From Onchocerca volvulus (lineage: Eukaryota; Nematoda; Chromadorea; Rhabditida; Onchocercidae), in contig HG738138.1 in NCBI GenBank assembly GCA_000499405.2, positions 11,959,208-12,023,207 on the forward strand: a stretch of DNA of 64,000 nucleotides, read 5' to 3'. Positions 23,647 to 44,610 of the stretch are shown in pieces (position 1 is the first letter of the stretch; each line of letters opens with the position of its first letter). Both the position numbers and the translations under genes were made by a program. The notes below the pieces were generated by a model. It searched no databases. It was not told the origin of the DNA and saw only the letters and a list, made by a program, of their open reading frames with translations.

Positions 23647-25305
23647 ATGTGGTTGTCGCTGTTTCTGTTCGTGTATAACGTTTGCAACGGTGTAGGCGCA
23701 ATTGTCGTTGGACAGTGCTGTCGGAAGCGTGGCGTAACAGAAACATGTACACGAATGCTATGTAATCCTCAGAATCCACCCAATGATTTCGATGTTTACA
23801 ATATTTTCGAACGAAAATTGAATTGTCAACCGTATATGAATGCAATCTCGGAATGCCTAGCTGATGGCCGTGATCATATTCATTGCTGTATGAGTGAAGC
23901 GAAGGATCGTGATGAAAATGCTTGTTTTGGAATGTGTCGTGGTGAAGGTATCGATGGTATTGCAGCTTGGGATAAGTATCAAACATGTTTAGCCATCAAT
24001 TTGCATCCCATGTTTCGTTGCTTCGAACGTGGCTATTTGAATATTCCTACGTCACCACTATCGTTACATATCGTTTCTAAAAGCACGGATAGTGTTGTAC
24101 TCTCCTGGTCACCACCAGCAGTTAATTCAAATCTCGCTGAATCCTATCAAGTTATCTGTAAAGAAGCTGATAGCGGTTTTATCGAAAAGACCATCAATAC
24201 TCGAAGCTATAAAGTCACACTTACAAGTTTACGCGCTGATAGTAAATATTCGGTACATGTAGTTGCAGTAACTCGTGATGGACACCATCGATCGTTACCT
24301 TCCGAGACAATCCATTTTTACACAGCTGGAGTGGCACCCAGAGTTATCGCATATCGTGAAACTGTTTCGATTCCGGTTGATGCATCTTCAGTGACAATTG
24401 CTTGCCGAATGGAAATGTCTGGTATCACTCACAAAAGTGCTCATTTTGAATGGAAGAAAATGCAGGAAAAAACGAGTCATTATGAAAAAGTTGGAGGAGA
24501 CAAGTACAGTTTCATCAATTATATTTCATCCCATGAACATCCACGGCATTATGTTTCTGCTCTCCAAATCAGATTCCTAAAACCATCGGATTTCGGCACT
24601 TATCGTTGTACTGCAACCAACGATGTCGGTAGTTCCAGTGCCGATATTCGAGTGGTGCAGCGTATGCTAACCTCAGCAACGCCAATACCACCGGAACCAC
24701 CATACATATGTTGTCAACGTTTGGGAATTCGATCACCGTGTATTGCCGTCTGTGGTTCTGAATTCGGTAAGCATGCCTCTCTACGAGCCGAATCATTCAT
24801 CAACAGTCACTGTGAAGACGAAATAAGCAAATTCCTTACTTGTACAACAGCAGGTGTTGATGAAGGTGCTTGTTGTTTACGAAAAAAGGTCCCTGGTATT
24901 TGTTTACCACTTTGCGATGGCTTTCAAATGAACAAATTGGATACTATCCCACACGCATGCGCTATACATACATTCTCTATTTTCCAATGTCGAATGGAAA
25001 ATGCAGAAAGTCGACCAGCTACCGTATCTGGATTAAAGGCTATTGCAGATTCGGATGGTGATCTATTATTACGCTGGGATTTAACACCACGCGCGGATAT
25101 GTATCATGTCTATTGGAAGCGTAAATTTTCAACAACTTGGGAATTGAGTTCTGTTGGAACAACCAGCAAACGTATTTATGGTAACGTTGCGAATGATATC
25201 GATGAAATTGTCGTGGTAGCATCAAACAGTTTCGGTAATGCTCATCCAGTACGGTTAATTCATAGTGATGATAAATGGATCGCCTCCTACAATTTCCAGT
25301 TCTGA
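23647..25305 (+). CDS. Secreted DB-module / fibronectin III / immunoglobulin protein (nematode IGDB type), single exon
   Basis: 552 aa in one uninterrupted frame. Residues 1-18 are a signal peptide (MWLSLFLFVYNVCNGVGA). A cysteine-rich DB module spans about 24-130 (QCCRKRG, CCMSEAKD, CFGMCRG, CLAINLHPMFRCF). FN3 spans about 135-228 (SWSPPA). An Ig-like domain spans about 232-338 (VTIACRMEM...SDFGTYRCTATNDVG). A second DB module spans about 354-447 (YICCQRLGI, CCLRKKVPGICLPLCDGF), and a second FN3 spans about 457-540 (LLLRWDLTPRADMYHVYW). DB modules are nematode-specific in my knowledge, and C. elegans has IG/FN3/DB (igdb) genes of this make-up, of unknown molecular role. No transmembrane segment or GPI tail is evident, so it is probably secreted. 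The absence of introns over 1.66 kb is unlike every other multi-domain gene in the window. Confidence 0.88.
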   Translation: MWLSLFLFVYNVCNGVGAIVVGQCCRKRGVTETCTRMLCNPQNPPNDFDVYNIFERKLNCQPYMNAISECLADGRDHIHCCMSEAKDRDENACFGMCRGEGIDGIAAWDKYQTCLAINLHPMFRCFERGYLNIPTSPLSLHIVSKSTDSVVLSWSPPAVNSNLAESYQVICKEADSGFIEKTINTRSYKVTLTSLRADSKYSVHVVAVTRDGHHRSLPSETIHFYTAGVAPRVIAYRETVSIPVDASSVTIACRMEMSGITHKSAHFEWKKMQEKTSHYEKVGGDKYSFINYISSHEHPRHYVSALQIRFLKPSDFGTYRCTATNDVGSSSADIRVVQRMLTSATPIPPEPPYICCQRLGIRSPCIAVCGSEFGKHASLRAESFINSHCEDEISKFLTCTTAGVDEGACCLRKKVPGICLPLCDGFQMNKLDTIPHACAIHTFSIFQCRMENAESRPATVSGLKAIADSDGDLLLRWDLTPRADMYHVYWKRKFSTTWELSSVGTTSKRIYGNVANDIDEIVVVASNSFGNAHPVRLIHSDDKWIASYNFQF

Positions 25306-26740
25306 TCTCAACGTCCAAAATTATCATTCATTTCCAAAAATTTGTTATGGTTTTGATGAATTGGAATTAAGTATAATTAAATTTCACTATAATTGAAATT
25401 TCATAAAATATTTTCTATATTTAGAATCATTTTCATTCTTATCCTATTGAAATATTTATTTTCTTATCTTCACTACTTTGCTTTTCTTTCCTTTTCTTGC
25501 AGCACTTGATACTGTCGAAATTGATCTCGCATTTTTATGTACTGATGCTTGCCTAAATCATTATATGCAAGTGACAACAAGCTAATCTTAGCTGTAAAGC
25601 ATTTTCCATTAAAAAATATGCAAGAAAAAGCGATACATAAGATATTTATAATTTGTCGCCATCTCTCTGTCTTTCTTATTCCGTACAACATGTGAACCTC
25701 TCATAGTTTCTACATTTGACCTTCATCTGTAAAGATTATGGGTTGATATGAAAGCAAATTGGTAAACGTGGCGTAAATATTACTTAACATATATATAATA
25801 AGAAGAATGATAAGCACATTTTTGCTCCTACTTATCAAATTCAGCTGAATCAATCCAAAATATCCTACTATCAATTGAATCTTGTTTTCTGGTAATTCAG
25901 ATTATCTTCCGAATTTTCCAATTATCATTTTTACATTGTTTTGTTATAATGACAGCCTTTTTTATGAGACATCAAAGCAGCATCGTCCAATAATCATTCC
26001 ATTTATTCTAATACTCGGTTAAGTTATGACTTTGATTATCAACATATGAGTTATCATTCCATCTTATGTTTCGATATTGCTTAATCCATGCAAAGTTCCA
26101 TATCATAATAATGTAATCATGCTGATTTTAAATGAAGAAATTTACTCAATTCTTTTCTATTTTTGATAATTAACAGAGAATGTATTGTTGCTATTATCAT
26201 TTGCTGGTATGTACAGTGGTTTATAAATCGATATATATTTCGATAGAAGATAATGCTTGTATTATGTGAAGCGAAATGCGAAATAAATCTTCATGTAATA
26301 TACATTGCAAGTACTACAAAAGATATAAATGCAATTGCAAATTATTCAGCTCCATGCGTTTGTAAATTAATTGATGTTCGAAATTTAAAGCATTTAGTTT
26401 GAAATTAAAATTAGTTAACCTGTAGAGAACAACAATTGATTTCTTCATCTTCTTTCGTTCCCATGTTTATTTTCAAGCAATGTAAAAACTTGAACCTGAT
26501 GTTACGTATCTGATTACTTCTTTCAAAAATGCATGATAATACATAAGTTCCGGATCAACACTAAATCATCATCAAAAGAAACATGATTTATTTCCGATAC
26601 ATATTGTTTATTTTCTTGAAAGTTAGGTTACGGAAAAGTCTATGTCGGGAAAGTTGATTTGTAGCACGAACGAATCTCAAACTTGAATTCTGGTGCAGCG
26701 GTAATAATGCAACTGTCGAGAAATTTGTTAGTGACACAAC

Positions 26741-26762
26741 CTCAAACTTGGGTAATTAAACC
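26741..26762 (-). other. Exact copy of nematode SL1 spliced-leader sequence
   Basis: On the minus strand these 22 bases match the canonical SL1 leader from its GGTTTAATTACC start to its CAAGTTTGAG end with no mismatch, and are followed by GTTGTG, which would serve as an SL donor. Chance occurrence is negligible. SL1 is trans-spliced onto many nematode mRNAs. I do not see a clear Sm-binding site (AATTTTTGG-like) in the next 100 bases, nor an adjacent 5S rRNA gene. It may therefore be an orphan or variant SL RNA gene, a pseudogene, or the 5' end of a retro-inserted trans-spliced mRNA. A second 10-nt match to the SL1 3' half (CAAGTTTGAG) lies 65 bases downstream on the same strand (26676-26685). 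Confidence 0.75.
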
Positions 26763-27494
26763 GTTTATCACGAAACTTTGATAACACGAAAACGAATACG
26801 ACCATTACAATGTCAATCAAATCAACAAAACAATTCTAATGATGATACCAGAACCCAAAAGGGAGTCTAAAGCGATTCTGACCTATTAAACCGCCCTTGT
26901 GATAACAACCCTTAAAAATGATCCTATACTCAGAACTACTCTTATTTATAGGGAGAGGACAATGATAGAGTTTGATCTAAAAGAAAGCGCCATCATTAGC
27001 AATGAGATCGCGCGAATAAAGACGCGTGACCTAGACTATAATATCTGAATTATTGATAGCACATCAAAACAATTCAAAACGACAAAAATGATTGAATTAT
27101 AAAATTGATTTTACGAAGTTTCTCGGAATTTCCGACACTTCAATCATGCCAACATATCTGAGATTTCTACCATCCTGTCCCTTTTATACAACGAATGCAT
27201 AAGCGTGCTTTACTTTTCCATAAGTTAAAGATGAAATTCGCATAATTGTTTATTCATAATGTTCAAAAAAGAAAAAAAGAAATTATTTAGTTTCATTCAA
27301 TTTCATTAAATTTTCTCATTTATATCAAACGAATCACGTCGACTAATAAATAATTCTTTCAACTATAGTAATCTACCGAAATAGTACACCTCATTATGAC
27401 TTGTGGTAGGAAAGCTATAATAAATCAGAATCAATTGCATTTGATCGGATGATCATGCGCGAATTAGTAAAAATGCGCGAAAAACTGGTGCATT

Positions 27495-27670: not shown

Positions 27671-30256
27671 ATACAGCTGGGGTTTATTGTACGATGTTGG
27701 GAGTGAGGGAGGCGGTGATGGTAAAAGATTAACAGTGGTGAAGGGAATGATTGGTAGTAATTATACGCGGGTTTGACTAGTTAGTACGTGAGATTGTTTT
27801 AACTGCGCATAATCGATATATGTTCACGCAATTTGTAATAAATGTGATCATTTATAAAATATTTTGTATCATCAAAATTTAAAGCGCAATATTTTTAAAT
27901 TCCACAATCTGGATGCAAAAGCTATGAATGCGCATTTAAAAATCATCAACCACGTTATGAAATTTCTAAAAGAAGGACATCCATGTCAACCATGATTTTT
28001 CAAGCAGCGATGGTAAGCATATTTTTGGGCCGAAAGAGCCAGTTTGGGCCGGAGTTGCCGAAGATGGCGGATTTGGTGAGGTTTCTATGAGATTACCCAA
28101 AGTAGCTCAAGCTATTGTTTGTCTACTACATGCGTAAGGCAAAAGTTTTTCTTCACGTTTTGTTGCCATGCCGGATATAAACTTTGGAACAGTTGGAGCT
28201 CTGAAAATTTTTGCATTTGATTTTCTACGCTTGATATTAACCAATCAGTTATAAATCTTGTTATTCATCTTCGGCAACTTTTATTTTCTCTATAAATTTT
28301 GGTGGCTCTTGAACTTTGTGAATTATTTGACCAATTATGGTAATGGAAACTTTTAACATAGCGATATGGCAGCGGAAGATTACTGATGGACTCGTCGAGA
28401 TAGCGACAACCATGAAGAAGTAGAAGACCGGCTGCCTATTCCCTAGTCAGCTGATGACGAAGATAACGAAGCACTTGTAAGCGAGGAGAATGAAGACTAG
28501 CCATCCTCACTCATAGATTCAACCGGCTCCGGATCCATGATGAGGAGAAAAAAGAAACAGAAAAGATGCCGGTATCACAAGTGCTATCAGCAGCACCAGT
28601 AGCCGGTGCAGAACTTGGGGAGACACAGCCGGTATATCGATTTGCTGCTACAAATTCAATTATCATTTTTTTGCACATTCAAGTACGTGTTTTTTTGTTA
28701 GTGCAGAAAAAATGCTTGGATTCTGATGCAATATTTTGCTAAATTCTATATCAGATTCTTGATTTCAGATATGTAGAATTATTATTCCAAAATCTGTTGA
28801 GGTTTGAGCTTTGTAGGCGATCATGAATCATAATGGTGCCGATACCGGCGACACTGGCACAGAGCCGGAAAGTTAGGAGGCCTTCACCTTGCTATGTATT
28901 CAAAGGCCTTCCAGACGAATTTGAAGACCAGTTTCGGGCACCGGAAGTGGAATCTTACACAGTTGTACGAAATGTGGAAGAGTTGATGTGAATTTCTCAA
29001 TTGGTATGTATTTCTTCATTCAACATGCAGAAGATCCATATTATAAGTATTTTCCATAAAAATTTCTGCCGATATCTGCAAATATGGAAAGGATAGTTGC
29101 AGCTTCTTTTTCAACTATTCAAAATTGATCGAATTCTAAACAGAATATTCATTCATTATTTTACTTTACTTCAATCATGTATCCGGCTCCGATAGCAGCT
29201 TCATTGCATGCTGCGCAATTGCTCGTAAAAACGGTAAGGATTTAAAGGATTTTTGGAATTTTTTCTTAATAAGTAACCTTTTTTATTTGCTTATATATAC
29301 ATATATTTTTTTTAACTTCTGTTTCAGCATTATAACTCAGGTTGCTATTTTCAGATTTTTGTCTACGGTGTTGCCGTTATATCCGCATGCCGCTACAATA
29401 GGAAGCGGCACACCGTTTGGTAGTAATGAAACAATATGACCTCGAATGTTCGAATGAGTGCGAATGCACGAGCTATGCAAATAAAATCTCGTTAAAAAGA
29501 GACATTTGGCGTTATTAGACCATTGTGAAGAGAGATTATGTGTTTATATAAAAGATCGCTGTTTCAAATATTGTGAATCTCCGGAATATAGTACTTGAAA
29601 CTACAATGAATTTCTTTGTGTTTTTTTCAGTATCATATCAGAGCAGGTTACAGCGATGCCACTCCTCATCAGCCTCTTGATTCTGCTCGTCCATGACCAA
29701 ATCCGCCTATCTTTAGCGAAGTTGGTAAAATTTTAAAGAAAATGGAAAAATTAGAGTAAAAAAGTAAAAAAAAAAAAAAAAAAAAACAGAAAAATGAAGG
29801 AAAAAGTACAGAAACAAAAAAGACAAGAAGATATGAAAAACTTTACGAAAAAAAATTAAGGAATAGAACATTTTTTTTTAATTTTTTTAACTCATGAAGC
29901 AGTTAAATTTTGGAGGAGTTCAGGAAGGATGGAATGCAAATAACTTTAAATTAATTTTTAGTATGCTAAATAAGGCGAAGAAGTATTGGAAATTTTTGGT
30001 AAAAGTCTCAGCTCGAAAGATTTTTTCCATATCGTTTAAAGCTTAGATTGTAGTCTTCTCCAGAATTTAACTATTTTTGTTTCAGTAAATATTTTGTTTG
30101 ACTGTTTTTTTTTTTTGATTAATAATTTTTTGAGTTTTCTACTATACGTAATTTATATTTTATTTGCTTATAATTCTAAATAATTCCCGTTTATTATTGC
30201 TCGTATTTCCTTTTTTTTTTTTTTTATTTTTGAATTTTCTCCAAAAGTTTTTACCT

Positions 30257-31010
30257 ATTGCTTTGAAATTTTGACAAAACGTTACACTGGAATATGCGCA
30301 TACTTTACCGAGCGCACTGAGCATTGCATACTGAAGGCCACGTCCACTTTGCAGAAAATAAGCGTGATTAATAGATTTTTAGTCCGCTCACTTACTTTTA
30401 TTTGTCAGAAATGTGACAGGTAAAAATGAAGTAGGTAAATCTATATAAAACGTGCCTATTCGAATGCAACGTTATGTCAAAATTTCAAATCAATGGGTAA
30501 AAGTTTGAAACGTTGTGTCAAAATGAACAACGAAATTTACGACAAAGAGGCAATCCAAAACACGACCTAATATTAGAAGTCAAAAGGTAATCCGTAAATT
30601 GCTTGAACGAAAGATTTTATTATACACTATCATGACCTCGACATTTCTGCCACGCAACTACATGCTCCACAAATCAAAAAATAAGCGAACTAAATTCCCC
30701 AAAAAATAAACAAAAAAAAAAAAAAAAACTCAAATTACGCGCCTATTCGAATGAAGCGTTATATGAAAATTTCAGATCAGTCGGTGACAACTTGAAATGT
30801 TGCAGGAAGTCGATGCAGAAAGTGGGCGGAGTCAAAAAAATCCAATCTGCTCAGTGGCTTGACTTGTGAAAAAAAAGTATGTCTATATAAAAAAAACACG
30901 CGCCTATTCGAATGCAAGGTTGTGTCAAAATTTGGAAGCAATTGGTGAACTTCCAGAGATTTATCATTTATAGCAGCGAACATTTTCATTTTTATTTATA
31001 TAGATATGCA
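30257..31010. repeat. Dispersed repeat with direct and inverted copies of one about 50-100 bp module
   Basis: A module reading cgcctattcgaatgcaacgt, then tgtgtcaaaatttnaa and tcantnggtgaa, occurs in plus orientation at about 30448, 30740 and 30902, and inverted at about 30257-30303 (ttgacaaaacgtta). The inverted copy's homology continues for about another 50 bases, to match the cagaaagtgggcggagtc...ctcagtgg part of the copy near 30815. The plus copies at 30448 and 30902 are both preceded by tctatataaaa. The right end finishes in tttttatttatatagat, a tail seen in several transposon families. No protein remains, so this is probably a non-autonomous DNA-transposon relic or nested insertions. Confidence 0.55.
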
Positions 31011-32640: not shown

Positions 32641-33443
32641 AAAATTTAATAAAAGTTTATTGAAAAACGAAGTCGAAATTTTCCAGTGCAAAATTTTCAA
32701 TTTTTTATATCCATCTGTTCCCAATGCAATTATTGGCATAAGCTTGAAAATTGCCGTGGCAACATGCAGTCGTCCAGCTAGTCGTAAATGTAATTTTCAC
32801 TCATCATAACCAGTTTAATTAATTTTGGAATTCAAACCATATTCTGAGATGTTAGCTTTTTAATTCTTGTCGGAAAAGTCCGAAAATTATAATAATCAAG
32901 AAGTAATAGAGTTCAAAAAGTGCAGGTAAACATTTTTGCCTCCAAACACTAAACAAAGAAACAAACTTGCTTCTTGCTAAAAAGGTAACATGTTAACCAC
33001 CAAAAGAGGAAATATGTTTAATAACGAGGGATAAATATGTTTCCCGCCGAAATGATAGACATCTTTACCATCAAGATGCTCCGATTCACACAGAAACAAA
33101 GCGAAGTCGACCGATCATGAGACGACAAATTGGAGATCAGGAAAGAAAAAGGAACTTCGGAAGGATATATAAGGGTCGGATTTTGAAGAATCATTCTTGC
33201 CTGAAAATTCTCTAGAGCATTATCAGCCTCTACAACGATGCAGAAGGCTACAGCGACGGTTTCTACAACAATCAATAAGTCGATAATCTTCGCTATTGTC
33301 AGCAAGAATGATCCTGTGATCAATTATCTTGAATATTCTTCAACAAATTTTTATATTATATAGGAAGATAAACTTTTCCATTATCAATAAAATCTTTTCT
33401 CATCAAAAATTCGTTTGCGCTACAAAAACCAACTTTCCAAAAA

Positions 33444-43293: not shown

Positions 43294-44610
43294 AGGAAAT
43301 AAACATGGATTCAACCTGCCAAAATAATTGATTAAGAATTAACAATGATGAGAAATTAAACCTTCTAGAAATCAGGAATCAGTGAATAATTTGTAATTAG
43401 AATCTGCGAAGCAGTATCACTACAATAATCAATTCAGTACTAATAATGATGATCTCATCCTTCTCGGAATCAAAAATCATAGAGTAAATAAATTATTCAT
43501 TAAGTTCCATCCCTTCTTAAACTGGAATCTGCGAAGCAATAGCTATTTTGATATTCTTAAAATTATATTTGTATGTGCTCGAGAACATTTCATAAGGATC
43601 AATCACATGTGAAATTTTACACGGACTACTGCCGATAATCCATCAAGTAAATAGTTAAACATGACGTATAGCTATGCTCGTACACCGCCTTATCGATATA
43701 GTGAACGACCGAAAAATCGTGAAAATCTTAGATGTGTAGCAGGAAAAATTGTTGATTGTGCCTGACTTAAAATTTGGATCCATAAAATTTATGAATACTC
43801 TGTTGTCAGGTTATTTTATAGGATCACATTAAGATCAACTCTGCAACTTTTGCAACTTTCAAAACTGGTTTTACAAAGGGTGTAAACGAGTAGTTGGTTG
43901 CTGATGGAACAATGGAAGCAATAAGCTGAATGACCATAGGTCGAATGTCGATTCGAATTTCTCTGGCTAATTAACACAGACATCCGATTCGACGATTCGT
44001 TCTTTGGTCACTCTGTCCGACAAATGATATTAGTGCCAATATGAATATGTAGATAGTTGTTATTTATCCGTTCAAATGATAGCAGCGTTTACTTTAGGGA
44101 AATCAAAAGTTCCAAGATCATCCTGAAAATCTCTGTTAAAGTAGGAGTGACAACAGAAAGTTATAACATGAAGATTACTCTTATATCAAATTAGGCAAAC
44201 AAATCAATGAAATATTCAAGTTTTTAAAAAAAGAAAAGAAAATGCTGCAGGGAATGACACAACTACATCCGGATAAATTAATCTTAAGCTAAAATAAAAT
44301 ATCAAGAATTTCCTCACTATACTTCATCATGTCCAAGTTTATAATACGACAGTTTCACACGATTTGGCTACAAATAGATATCATTAGATTGAAGAAATAA
44401 GGCCGGTAATAATTCGTCAATTGATATTCAGCGAGAGGAAAAAAAAAAAAGGAATCTAATTTTGCATCACTTTACAATATCTGACATTCGATTTTTATAC
44501 CAACATGTAAAATTTAAGTAATTATCGGCAAAATAATAAAAACATCGTAATTACCGGCAAATCAATAATTTCCGAAGTTATTATTGTCTAATCTATTTCA
44601 TATTTTTCAG

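What the first reader, a model, noticed from the sequence alone, without database searches (positions are those of the whole stretch)
26741..26762. Exact SL1 spliced-leader sequence in an isolated, non-5S context
All 22 bases of nematode SL1 occur on the minus strand, followed by a GT that could act as the SL donor. SL1 genes are usually repeated, often interspersed with 5S rRNA genes; neither is seen here, and no obvious Sm site follows. Either this is an orphan SL RNA locus with a divergent body, or the 5' end of a trans-spliced mRNA that was reverse-transcribed and inserted. The second possibility would make it a visible footprint of retroposition. The 10-nt partial repeat of the SL1 3' half 65 bases on is unexplained.
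Basis: partly seen in the sequence, partly recalled or inferred. Interest (0 to 1): 0.75.

Follow-up and report, generated by a model that had tools for sequence, protein, structure and literature searches.

The report
Spliced-leader copy inside retrotransposon LTR
The isolated 22-base spliced-leader sequence is part of an old solo LTR left by a BEL/Pao retrotransposon, one of a large group in this roundworm genome that carries the host's spliced leader inside its terminal repeats, probably because its RNA is trans-spliced before it is copied back into DNA.

Summary
In detail: exact SL1 lies at 26741-26762 (minus), with a 10-nt partial copy 65 nt on. It is neither an orphan SL RNA gene nor a retrocopied host mRNA. 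It lies inside a 495-bp solo LTR (26643-27137, minus; TGTCGG...CCGACA) of a BEL/Pao retrotransposon family in a filarial nematode. True SL RNA genes form a 313-bp tandem array elsewhere. 366 sites match AATAAA+SL1 with up to 2 mismatches (reversed control 0). Of 30 dispersed copies read, 28 have a poly(A)-type hexamer just before SL1 and 10 sit in LTR-like units with exact 5-bp repeats. Two related elements with LTR pairs over 99% identical carry exact SL1 in all four LTRs. SL1 stays the same where U3 no longer aligns, across deep protease clades; some BEL elements lack it. The partial copy belongs to a tandem SL1-U5 duplication. Likely mechanism: SL1 serves as the R region. The genomic RNA is trans-spliced, and SL1 at both RNA ends allows first-strand transfer, so the leader is refreshed each cycle. 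This is inferred; no RNA was examined. SL1 beside PAO elements was already reported in Brugia malayi (PMC7181701). The LTR position, conservation and R-region model are what is added.

The parts
26643..27137 (-). Solo LTR of a BEL/Pao retrotransposon, 495 bp, TGTCGG...CCGACA
   Evidence: 48 other matching pieces in the genome (40 of 245 candidates scored, so a lower bound); nine fetched relatives 78-87% identical; exact 5-bp TSDs in 5 of 11 family members and 4/5 in 3 more
26763..27137 (-). U3 part of the LTR (375 nt)
   Evidence: 72.5% identical to U3 of an element with a near-identical LTR pair
26764..26769 (-). Poly(A)-signal-like hexamer GATAAA, 1 nt before SL1
   Evidence: read; an NNTRAA hexamer ends 0-2 nt before SL1 in 28 of 30 dispersed copies
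26741..26762 (-). Exact SL1 (22 nt), proposed R region
   Evidence: same place in the LTRs of related elements
26714..26740 (-). First U5 copy (U5a, 27 nt), ending CGACA like the LTR end
   Evidence: aligns with U5b above all 500 shuffles for the window copy; in the 10 family members that have U5a, at most 1 of 500 shuffles reaches the observed score
26690..26713 (-). 24-nt linker between the two SL1-U5 units (perhaps an old primer-binding region; not shown)
   Evidence: alignment; interpretation is inference
26676..26685 (-).
   Evidence: in L057 and L059 the same ATTCGTTCG follows a full SL1
26643..26675 (-). Second U5 copy (U5b, 33 nt), end of the LTR
27138..27142 (-). 5' flank TGAAG; does not match the 3' flank TAGAC at 26638-26642 (2 of 5), so no target-site duplication is visible for this copy

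Best explanation
The SL1 copy is a built-in segment of a BEL/Pao retrotransposon LTR; the window holds an old solo LTR. (Identity: shown; I would put it at about 0.95.) Mechanism, inferred, about 0.5: the element's transcript starts in U3, a short AU-rich outron precedes the 'TTTGAG|R' end of SL1, and host SL RNA is trans-spliced there. The genomic RNA then begins SL1-U5-PBS-gag. The 3' end is cleaved a little after the poly(A) signal, that is within or just after the SL1 of the 3' LTR. SL1 is therefore present at both RNA ends and serves as the short R repeat for minus-strand strong-stop transfer. Each cycle copies the leader afresh from the host's SL RNA, which keeps it exact while U3 and U5 drift. 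Misplaced splicing or template switching leaves footprints such as SL1+TTTGAG and the tandem SL1-U5 units.
For: LTR nature: exact 5-bp repeats around TGTCG...CGACA-type units holding SL1 (10 of 30; 5 of 11 in the window family, cross-control 0 of 110 with 4 or more matches). L072 has two LTRs (89%) with exact SL1 in both, TSD GACTA and a PBS-like TTTTTTGGTGCC, and matches to Peptidase_A17, RVT_1, DUF1759, DUF1758, DUF5641 and integrase zinc-binding models in 4 of 5 open stretches. C3:11023327 and C2:22592564, found by A17 and LTR similarity (the LTR query included SL1, as 22 of about 400 matched bases), have LTR pairs over 99% identical, TSDs TTTGC and ACATT, and exact SL1 in all four LTRs. 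Position: a poly(A)-type hexamer ends 0-2 nt before SL1 in 28 of 30; AATAAA+SL1 with up to 2 mismatches occurs 366 times, reversed control 0. Exactness: among 79 SL1+U5 sites with up to 3 mismatches, SL1 has 1.8% substitutions per base and the adjacent 9 nt 21.5%, while U3 identity between families is mostly at shuffle level. Depth: SL1-bearing LTR pairs belong to both main A17 clades (in the deeper one by a short protease fragment of C5:8375217). Splice-like edge: the base after exact SL1 at the 80 non-G sites is A in 73, T in 7, C in 0, and all 7 T cases read SL1+TTTGAG, as expected if CCCAAG| inside SL1 was once used as acceptor. ATG lies about 60 nt after SL1 in L072.
Against: No RNA evidence was available. 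Two BEL elements with LTR pairs lack SL1 within 6 mismatches in the stretches read (for C4:1294581 the right-hand ~366 nt of the LTR). One of them, C4:8996576, is 83% identical in A17 to an SL1-bearing element, so SL1 is not needed for mobility in this group. Only 16 of 112 merged A17 loci have one of the 180 listed exact SL1 sites within 6 kb on the same strand, and 7 have one on the opposite strand; the list omits exact SL1 followed by G without AATAAA, so it undercounts. Within the window's own old family only 4 of 11 LTRs keep SL1 exact, and SL1 is hardly better kept (0.90) than some other parts of the LTR (up to 0.95), as expected for dead copies but no support. TTTGAG is a weak nematode acceptor (recalled). 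The 8-kb genomic RNA of C. elegans Cer1 was not SL1-trans-spliced (PMC3315495, passages). The comparison is biased towards SL1 because the U5 bases are family-specific. Common descent could explain part of the shared AATAAA-SL1 block. SL1+TTTGAG could be simple slippage.
Confidence: 0.6

Rival explanations
1. SL1 in the LTR is a promoter or translation feature: transcription starts at SL1 and gives an RNA that resembles a trans-spliced mRNA without splicing.
For: In Ascaris the SL sequence is itself part of the SL RNA gene promoter (recalled). A start at SL1 base 1 would also explain exactness and the place after U3.
Against: No significant similarity of the 120 nt upstream of SL1 to the SL RNA gene upstream region in any of 11 LTRs tested (shuffle p 0.13 to 0.98). 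It does not explain SL1+TTTGAG footprints. A poly(A)-type hexamer abuts SL1.
Confidence: 0.22
2. Passive tag: an SL was occasionally added to expressed PAO RNA and carried into DNA, with no role afterwards (close to the reading published for Brugia malayi).
For: PMC7181701 (passages) infers addition to expressed PAO elements and integration. A sister element without SL1 exists.
Against: SL1 sits at one place in the LTR, in both LTRs of elements with near-identical pairs, and is kept exact across families with unalignable U3.
Confidence: 0.15
3. One reading: a host mRNA with SL1 at its 5' end was reverse-transcribed and inserted.
For: Exact leader with no SL RNA gene body.
Against: The sequence downstream of SL1 is LTR U5 shared by dispersed copies, and U3 lies upstream. 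Among the 30 other copies read I saw, by eye, none of the form SL1 plus coding sequence without the upstream hexamer context (not tested systematically).
Confidence: 0.02
4. Orphan SL RNA gene with a divergent body.
For: SL1 followed by GT.
Against: No RF00198 hit in the window or in L062, no Sm site seen, an LTR context, and a normal SL RNA array elsewhere.
Confidence: 0.01

Closest known systems
Integral SL1 sequences near PAO retrotransposons in Brugia malayi (PMC7181701; passages read)
   Same: Dispersed SL1 outside SL RNA arrays, beside Pao elements, some flanking an element on the same strand; inferred addition to expressed elements
   Different: That text reports 120 integral copies, 60 within 1 kb of PAO. 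The passages read do not place SL1 within the LTR after a poly(A) signal, do not identify it as R, and do not mention tandem or TTTGAG footprints; its supplements were not read
BEL/Pao LTR retrotransposons of filariae, such as the Loa loa RF4 LTR (PMC4586141; passages read)
   Same: ~600-bp LTRs of Bel/Pao elements dispersed in a filarial genome
   Different: No spliced leader mentioned ('spliced leader' and 'SL1' 0 occurrences)
[quoted passage not shown]
   Same: Tandem R-type repeats within a BEL/Pao LTR, as in the window copy's SL1-U5 duplication
   Different: Paper not held; a silkworm element, with no SL1 to my knowledge
Relict spliced leaders on dinoflagellate retrogenes (PMC6050394, PMC12014239; search listing only)
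   Same: SL on an RNA becomes DNA-encoded after retroposition
   Different: Host retrogenes, not LTR elements
Cer1 of C. elegans (PMC3315495; passages read)
   Same: A nematode LTR element with SL1 trans-splicing of an RNA
   Different: Gypsy/Ty3; the spliced 2.4-kb RNA was found with and without SL1, the 8-kb genomic RNA without
Zeng, Alarcon and Donelson 1990 on SL sequence in many transcribed regions of Onchocerca volvulus (recalled), and Felder 1994 on Ascaris Tas (reference only); not held
   Same: Possibly the same phenomenon
   Different: Could not be read; may lower the novelty further

Membership tests
BEL/Pao LTR retrotransposon (solo LTR) | LTR with TG...CA ends and short target-site duplication | tested here: met
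   TGTCGG...CCGACA; in the family TSDs exact in 5 of 11, 4/5 in 3 more, control 0 of 110 (the start of L066 was moved by one base after inspection). The window copy itself shows no TSD (2 of 5)
BEL/Pao LTR retrotransposon (solo LTR) | Related full-length element with two LTRs of this family and Pao-type pol | tested here: met
   C3:11023327 and C2:22592564: PF05380 between two LTRs; U3 of C2:22592564 is 72.5% identical to the window U3
BEL/Pao LTR retrotransposon (solo LTR) | Internal coding region and second LTR at the window locus | tested here: not met
   No second LTR of this family in the window. Hence solo LTR, not an element
SL1 RNA gene (RF00198) | Rfam covariance model match with Sm site | tested here: not met
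   No hit in the window or L062; array copies in L001 score 129.7 bits
Retrocopied trans-spliced host mRNA | SL1 followed by mRNA sequence, no repeat family upstream | tested here: not met
   Both sides belong to the LTR family
SL1 as R region | SL1 at both ends of the genomic RNA | not testable with these tools
   No RNA data; the DNA arrangement (poly(A) hexamer, SL1, U5, PBS, ATG) fits

The most novel reading that the evidence does not exclude
A large group of BEL/Pao retrotransposons has replaced its own R region by the host's spliced leader: the trans-splicing machinery supplies the 5' terminal repeat in each cycle, so the RNA end needed for strand transfer is encoded by the host's SL RNA genes, and the leader in the LTR is continually rewritten from them.
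Probability: 0.45. Interest if true: 0.82.

Novelty: new variant of a known kind. Interest (0 to 1): 0.58.

Why it matters
Trans-splicing should harm an LTR element by cutting off its 5' R. An element that carries the leader in its LTR would turn this threat into a dependable terminal repeat. It would also explain integral SL1 sequences of filarial genomes, warn against calling trans-spliced genes or SL RNA genes from a genomic SL1 match alone, and give a natural marker of retroelement reverse transcription in nematodes.

Tried and rejected
Orphan SL RNA gene and host retrocopy were rejected (see rivals). SL RNA gene promoter capture: no significant upstream similarity in any of 11 LTRs. L047/L048 as an LTR pair: rejected, they share a 2738-bp stretch 99.96% alike. 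C2:14405879 was labelled SL1-bearing in the tree, but its neighbour L038 is a solo LTR with its own TSD. C3:1964031, C60:19741 and C5:7030135, also so labelled there, could not be confirmed by LTR pairs. The tree therefore labels only three elements with SL1 in LTR pairs and two without; 13 rows are unlabelled. Viral and prokaryote contig collections hold no exact ATAAA+SL1 and TAAA+SL1 match respectively; no other nematode genome could be searched. Ten paper searches were made. In the listings and passages I saw, only PMC7181701 joins SL1 in the genome to PAO elements; many subscription papers are not in the library. A search for poly(A)-tailed copies did not complete.

Full report
Observation. 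The 22-nt SL1 is exact on the minus strand at 26741-26762, the only match in the window with up to 3 mismatches, and none was found in 100 shuffles. The partial copy CAAGTTTGAG lies at 26676-26685. Rfam shows no SL RNA or 5S gene in the window; the only hit is a mir-5360 precursor. A neighbouring protein (23653-25302, plus) is 92% identical to a cluster represented by Loa loa, so the host is most likely a filarial nematode. The contig sizes recall Onchocerca volvulus from memory, which I did not test.

The genome. The window's assembly (94.7 Mb) has 603 SL1 sites with up to 1 mismatch, 0 in the reversed control. Many are a tandem array of 313-bp units of SL1 RNA genes with an AATTTTGG Sm site (RF00198 at 129.7 bits and no 5S hit in L001). 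Others are dispersed: 80 exact SL1 not followed by G, 100 exact AATAAA-SL1-G, and 366 AATAAA-SL1 sites with up to 2 mismatches, reversed control 0 (only the first 100 places are listed).

What the window copy is. A 1-kb query around the SL1 gave 49 matching pieces including itself (40 of 245 candidates scored, so a lower bound); 31 of the other 48 begin within query positions 158-168. The repeated unit is 26643-27137, TGTCGG...CCGACA. Nine relatives (the best-scoring after the window itself) plus L045 were compared with the window copy. Of the 11, 5 have exact 5-bp direct repeats at the ends (for L066 after moving the start by one base), 3 have 4 of 5, and 3 fail (window 2 of 5, L063 0, L068 1). 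L063 is followed by a PBS-like sequence and so is probably a 5' LTR. Among 110 mismatched pairings none reached 4. SL1 is exact in 4 of the 11 and within 1-3 edits in the other 7. The window copy is therefore a solo LTR that has lost its TSD, or arose by recombination between elements.

The other dispersed copies. I read the first 30 of the 80 sites. A poly(A)-type hexamer (AATAAA 21, GATAAA 3, AGTAAA 2, TATGAA 1, AATGAA 1) ends 0-2 nt before SL1 in 28 of 30; the base after SL1 is A in 27 and T in 3. A mechanical scan for TGTCG...ACA units with flanking 5-mers found an exact repeat in 10 of 30, one of them (L043) of doubtful length, and only a one-mismatch repeat in 3 more; 17 gave none. Families whose LTR does not begin TGTCG, such as that of L072 (L052/L053), cannot be found by this scan.

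The elements. L072 (C3:4506100-4513900), chosen for its two SL1 sites flanking an A17 hit, has LTRs 89% alike with exact SL1 in both, TSD GACTA, LTR end CACTACA followed by TTTTTTGGTGCC, and a start codon about 60 nt after SL1. Four of its five open stretches match DUF1759, DUF1758, RVT_1 plus Peptidase_A17, and integrase zinc-binding plus DUF5641 models, as in BEL/Pao. I then took five A17 loci chosen by protease match or by flanking LTR matches, whose query included SL1. C3:11023327 and C2:22592564 have LTR pairs over 99% identical, with exact SL1 in all four LTRs and TSDs TTTGC and ACATT. C4:8996576 (TSD ACAGG) and C4:1294581 have LTR pairs without SL1 within 6 mismatches in the stretches read; in the latter only the right-hand ~366 nt of the LTR were compared, up to its CGCGACA end and a PBS-like sequence. 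For C6:807164 no pair was found. A further element chosen for nearby SL1, C5:8375217, has LTRs 92.8% alike; the 3' LTR has exact SL1 and the 5' LTR a copy shortened by a deletion at the same place. C3:1964031, C60:19741 and C5:7030135 have SL1 nearby but no confirmed LTR pair.

Association and depth. Of 112 merged A17 loci, 16 have one of the 180 listed SL1 sites within 6 kb on the same strand and 7 on the opposite strand. On contigs C1-C5 the numbers are 11 and 3 of 75, against a same-strand mean of 0.6 and maximum of 5 in 1000 random placements (contig lengths approximate). So most A17 loci, many of them fragments, have no listed exact SL1 near; the list also omits exact SL1 followed by G without AATAAA, for example those of C3:11023327 and C2:22592564. 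In the A17 tree, SL1-bearing L072 and the C3/C2 pair are 54% identical, and C4:8996576 without SL1 is sister to the latter at 83-84%. The short A17 fragment of C5:8375217 is closest (82% over 39 residues) to C5:7030135, which is 34-44% identical to the other rows except C76:3829 (52%). SL1 was thus gained more than once, or gained once and lost.

Conservation. U3 identity between families is mostly 45-60%, where shuffled sequences give 50% (max 56), yet SL1 is identical in those compared, most of which were found through SL1. Among 79 sites with up to 3 mismatches to SL1 plus 9 U5 bases, SL1 has 31 substitutions in 1738 positions (1.8%) and U5 has 153 in 711 (21.5%); on the 38 distinct strings it is 3.7% against 17.3%. 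This comparison leans towards SL1, since U5 is family-specific. Among old copies of the window family SL1 is only as well kept as the better-kept parts of the LTR (0.90, where other 22-nt stretches range from 0.49 to 0.95).

Footprints. All 7 exact SL1 copies followed by T read SL1+TTTGAG, in at least two LTR families (L034/L035 and L045). If CCCAAG| inside an older SL1 served as acceptor, trans-splicing would yield exactly this; simple slippage is the alternative. In the window family the LTR reads SL1-U5a-linker-partial SL1-U5b. U5a and U5b are homologous: in the 10 members with U5a (L067 has none) at most 1 of 500 shuffles reaches the observed score. Tandem R copies are named in the title of the original Bombyx Pao paper (reference list; the paper was not held).

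Mechanism. Shown: in these elements SL1 is a segment of the LTR, between a poly(A)-type signal and U5. Inferred: the transcript is trans-spliced at the SL1 3' edge; cleavage after the signal leaves SL1 sequence at the RNA 3' end; SL1 therefore acts as R in first-strand transfer. The promoter rival finds no support in upstream similarity to SL RNA genes but is not excluded.

Prior work. PMC7181701 (passages; supplements not read) reports 120 integral SL1 in Brugia malayi, 60 within 1 kb of PAO elements, and infers that leaders were added to expressed elements and integrated. The window feature is thus of a known kind. In the passages read, and in the listings of my ten paper searches, I did not find the placement inside the LTR after the poly(A) signal, the R-region model, the footprints or the spread over protease clades. 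Two older papers that may bear on this (Onchocerca 1990, recalled; Tas 1994, seen as a reference) could not be read.

Noticed in passing
window 43930-44010 (-): mir-5360 microRNA precursor, 105.1 bits against a gathering score of 79.
   Followed up: no
window 23653-25302 (+): 550-aa open stretch for a DB-module, FN3 and Ig-domain protein, 92% identical to a Loa loa cluster.
   Followed up: partly
window 30238-31006 and 32925-33382: Stretches 70-88% similar to parts of several fetched loci, probably other dispersed repeats.
   Followed up: no
window 26463-26420 (-): Possible first exon (ATGGGAACG... ending CAG|GTTAAC) about 180 nt downstream of the solo LTR on the same strand; the LTR could act as its promoter. 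By eye only.
   Followed up: no
G000 C1:212246-242943: SL1 RNA genes in 313-bp tandem units; the stretch scanned (L001) has no 5S hit.
   Followed up: partly
L040 after the LTR end: Primer-binding-like stretch TTTTGGTCCAGCCAGCCGGATTCGAACC that resembles the complement of a tRNA 3' half (by eye), unlike the GGTGCC type of L072.
   Followed up: no
G000 C5:15610007-15613377: Three SL1 copies spaced 1674 bp on one strand.
   Followed up: no
L047 and L048: A 2738-bp stretch with SL1 present twice 4.5 kb apart at 99.96% identity: recent duplication or assembly artefact.
   Followed up: no
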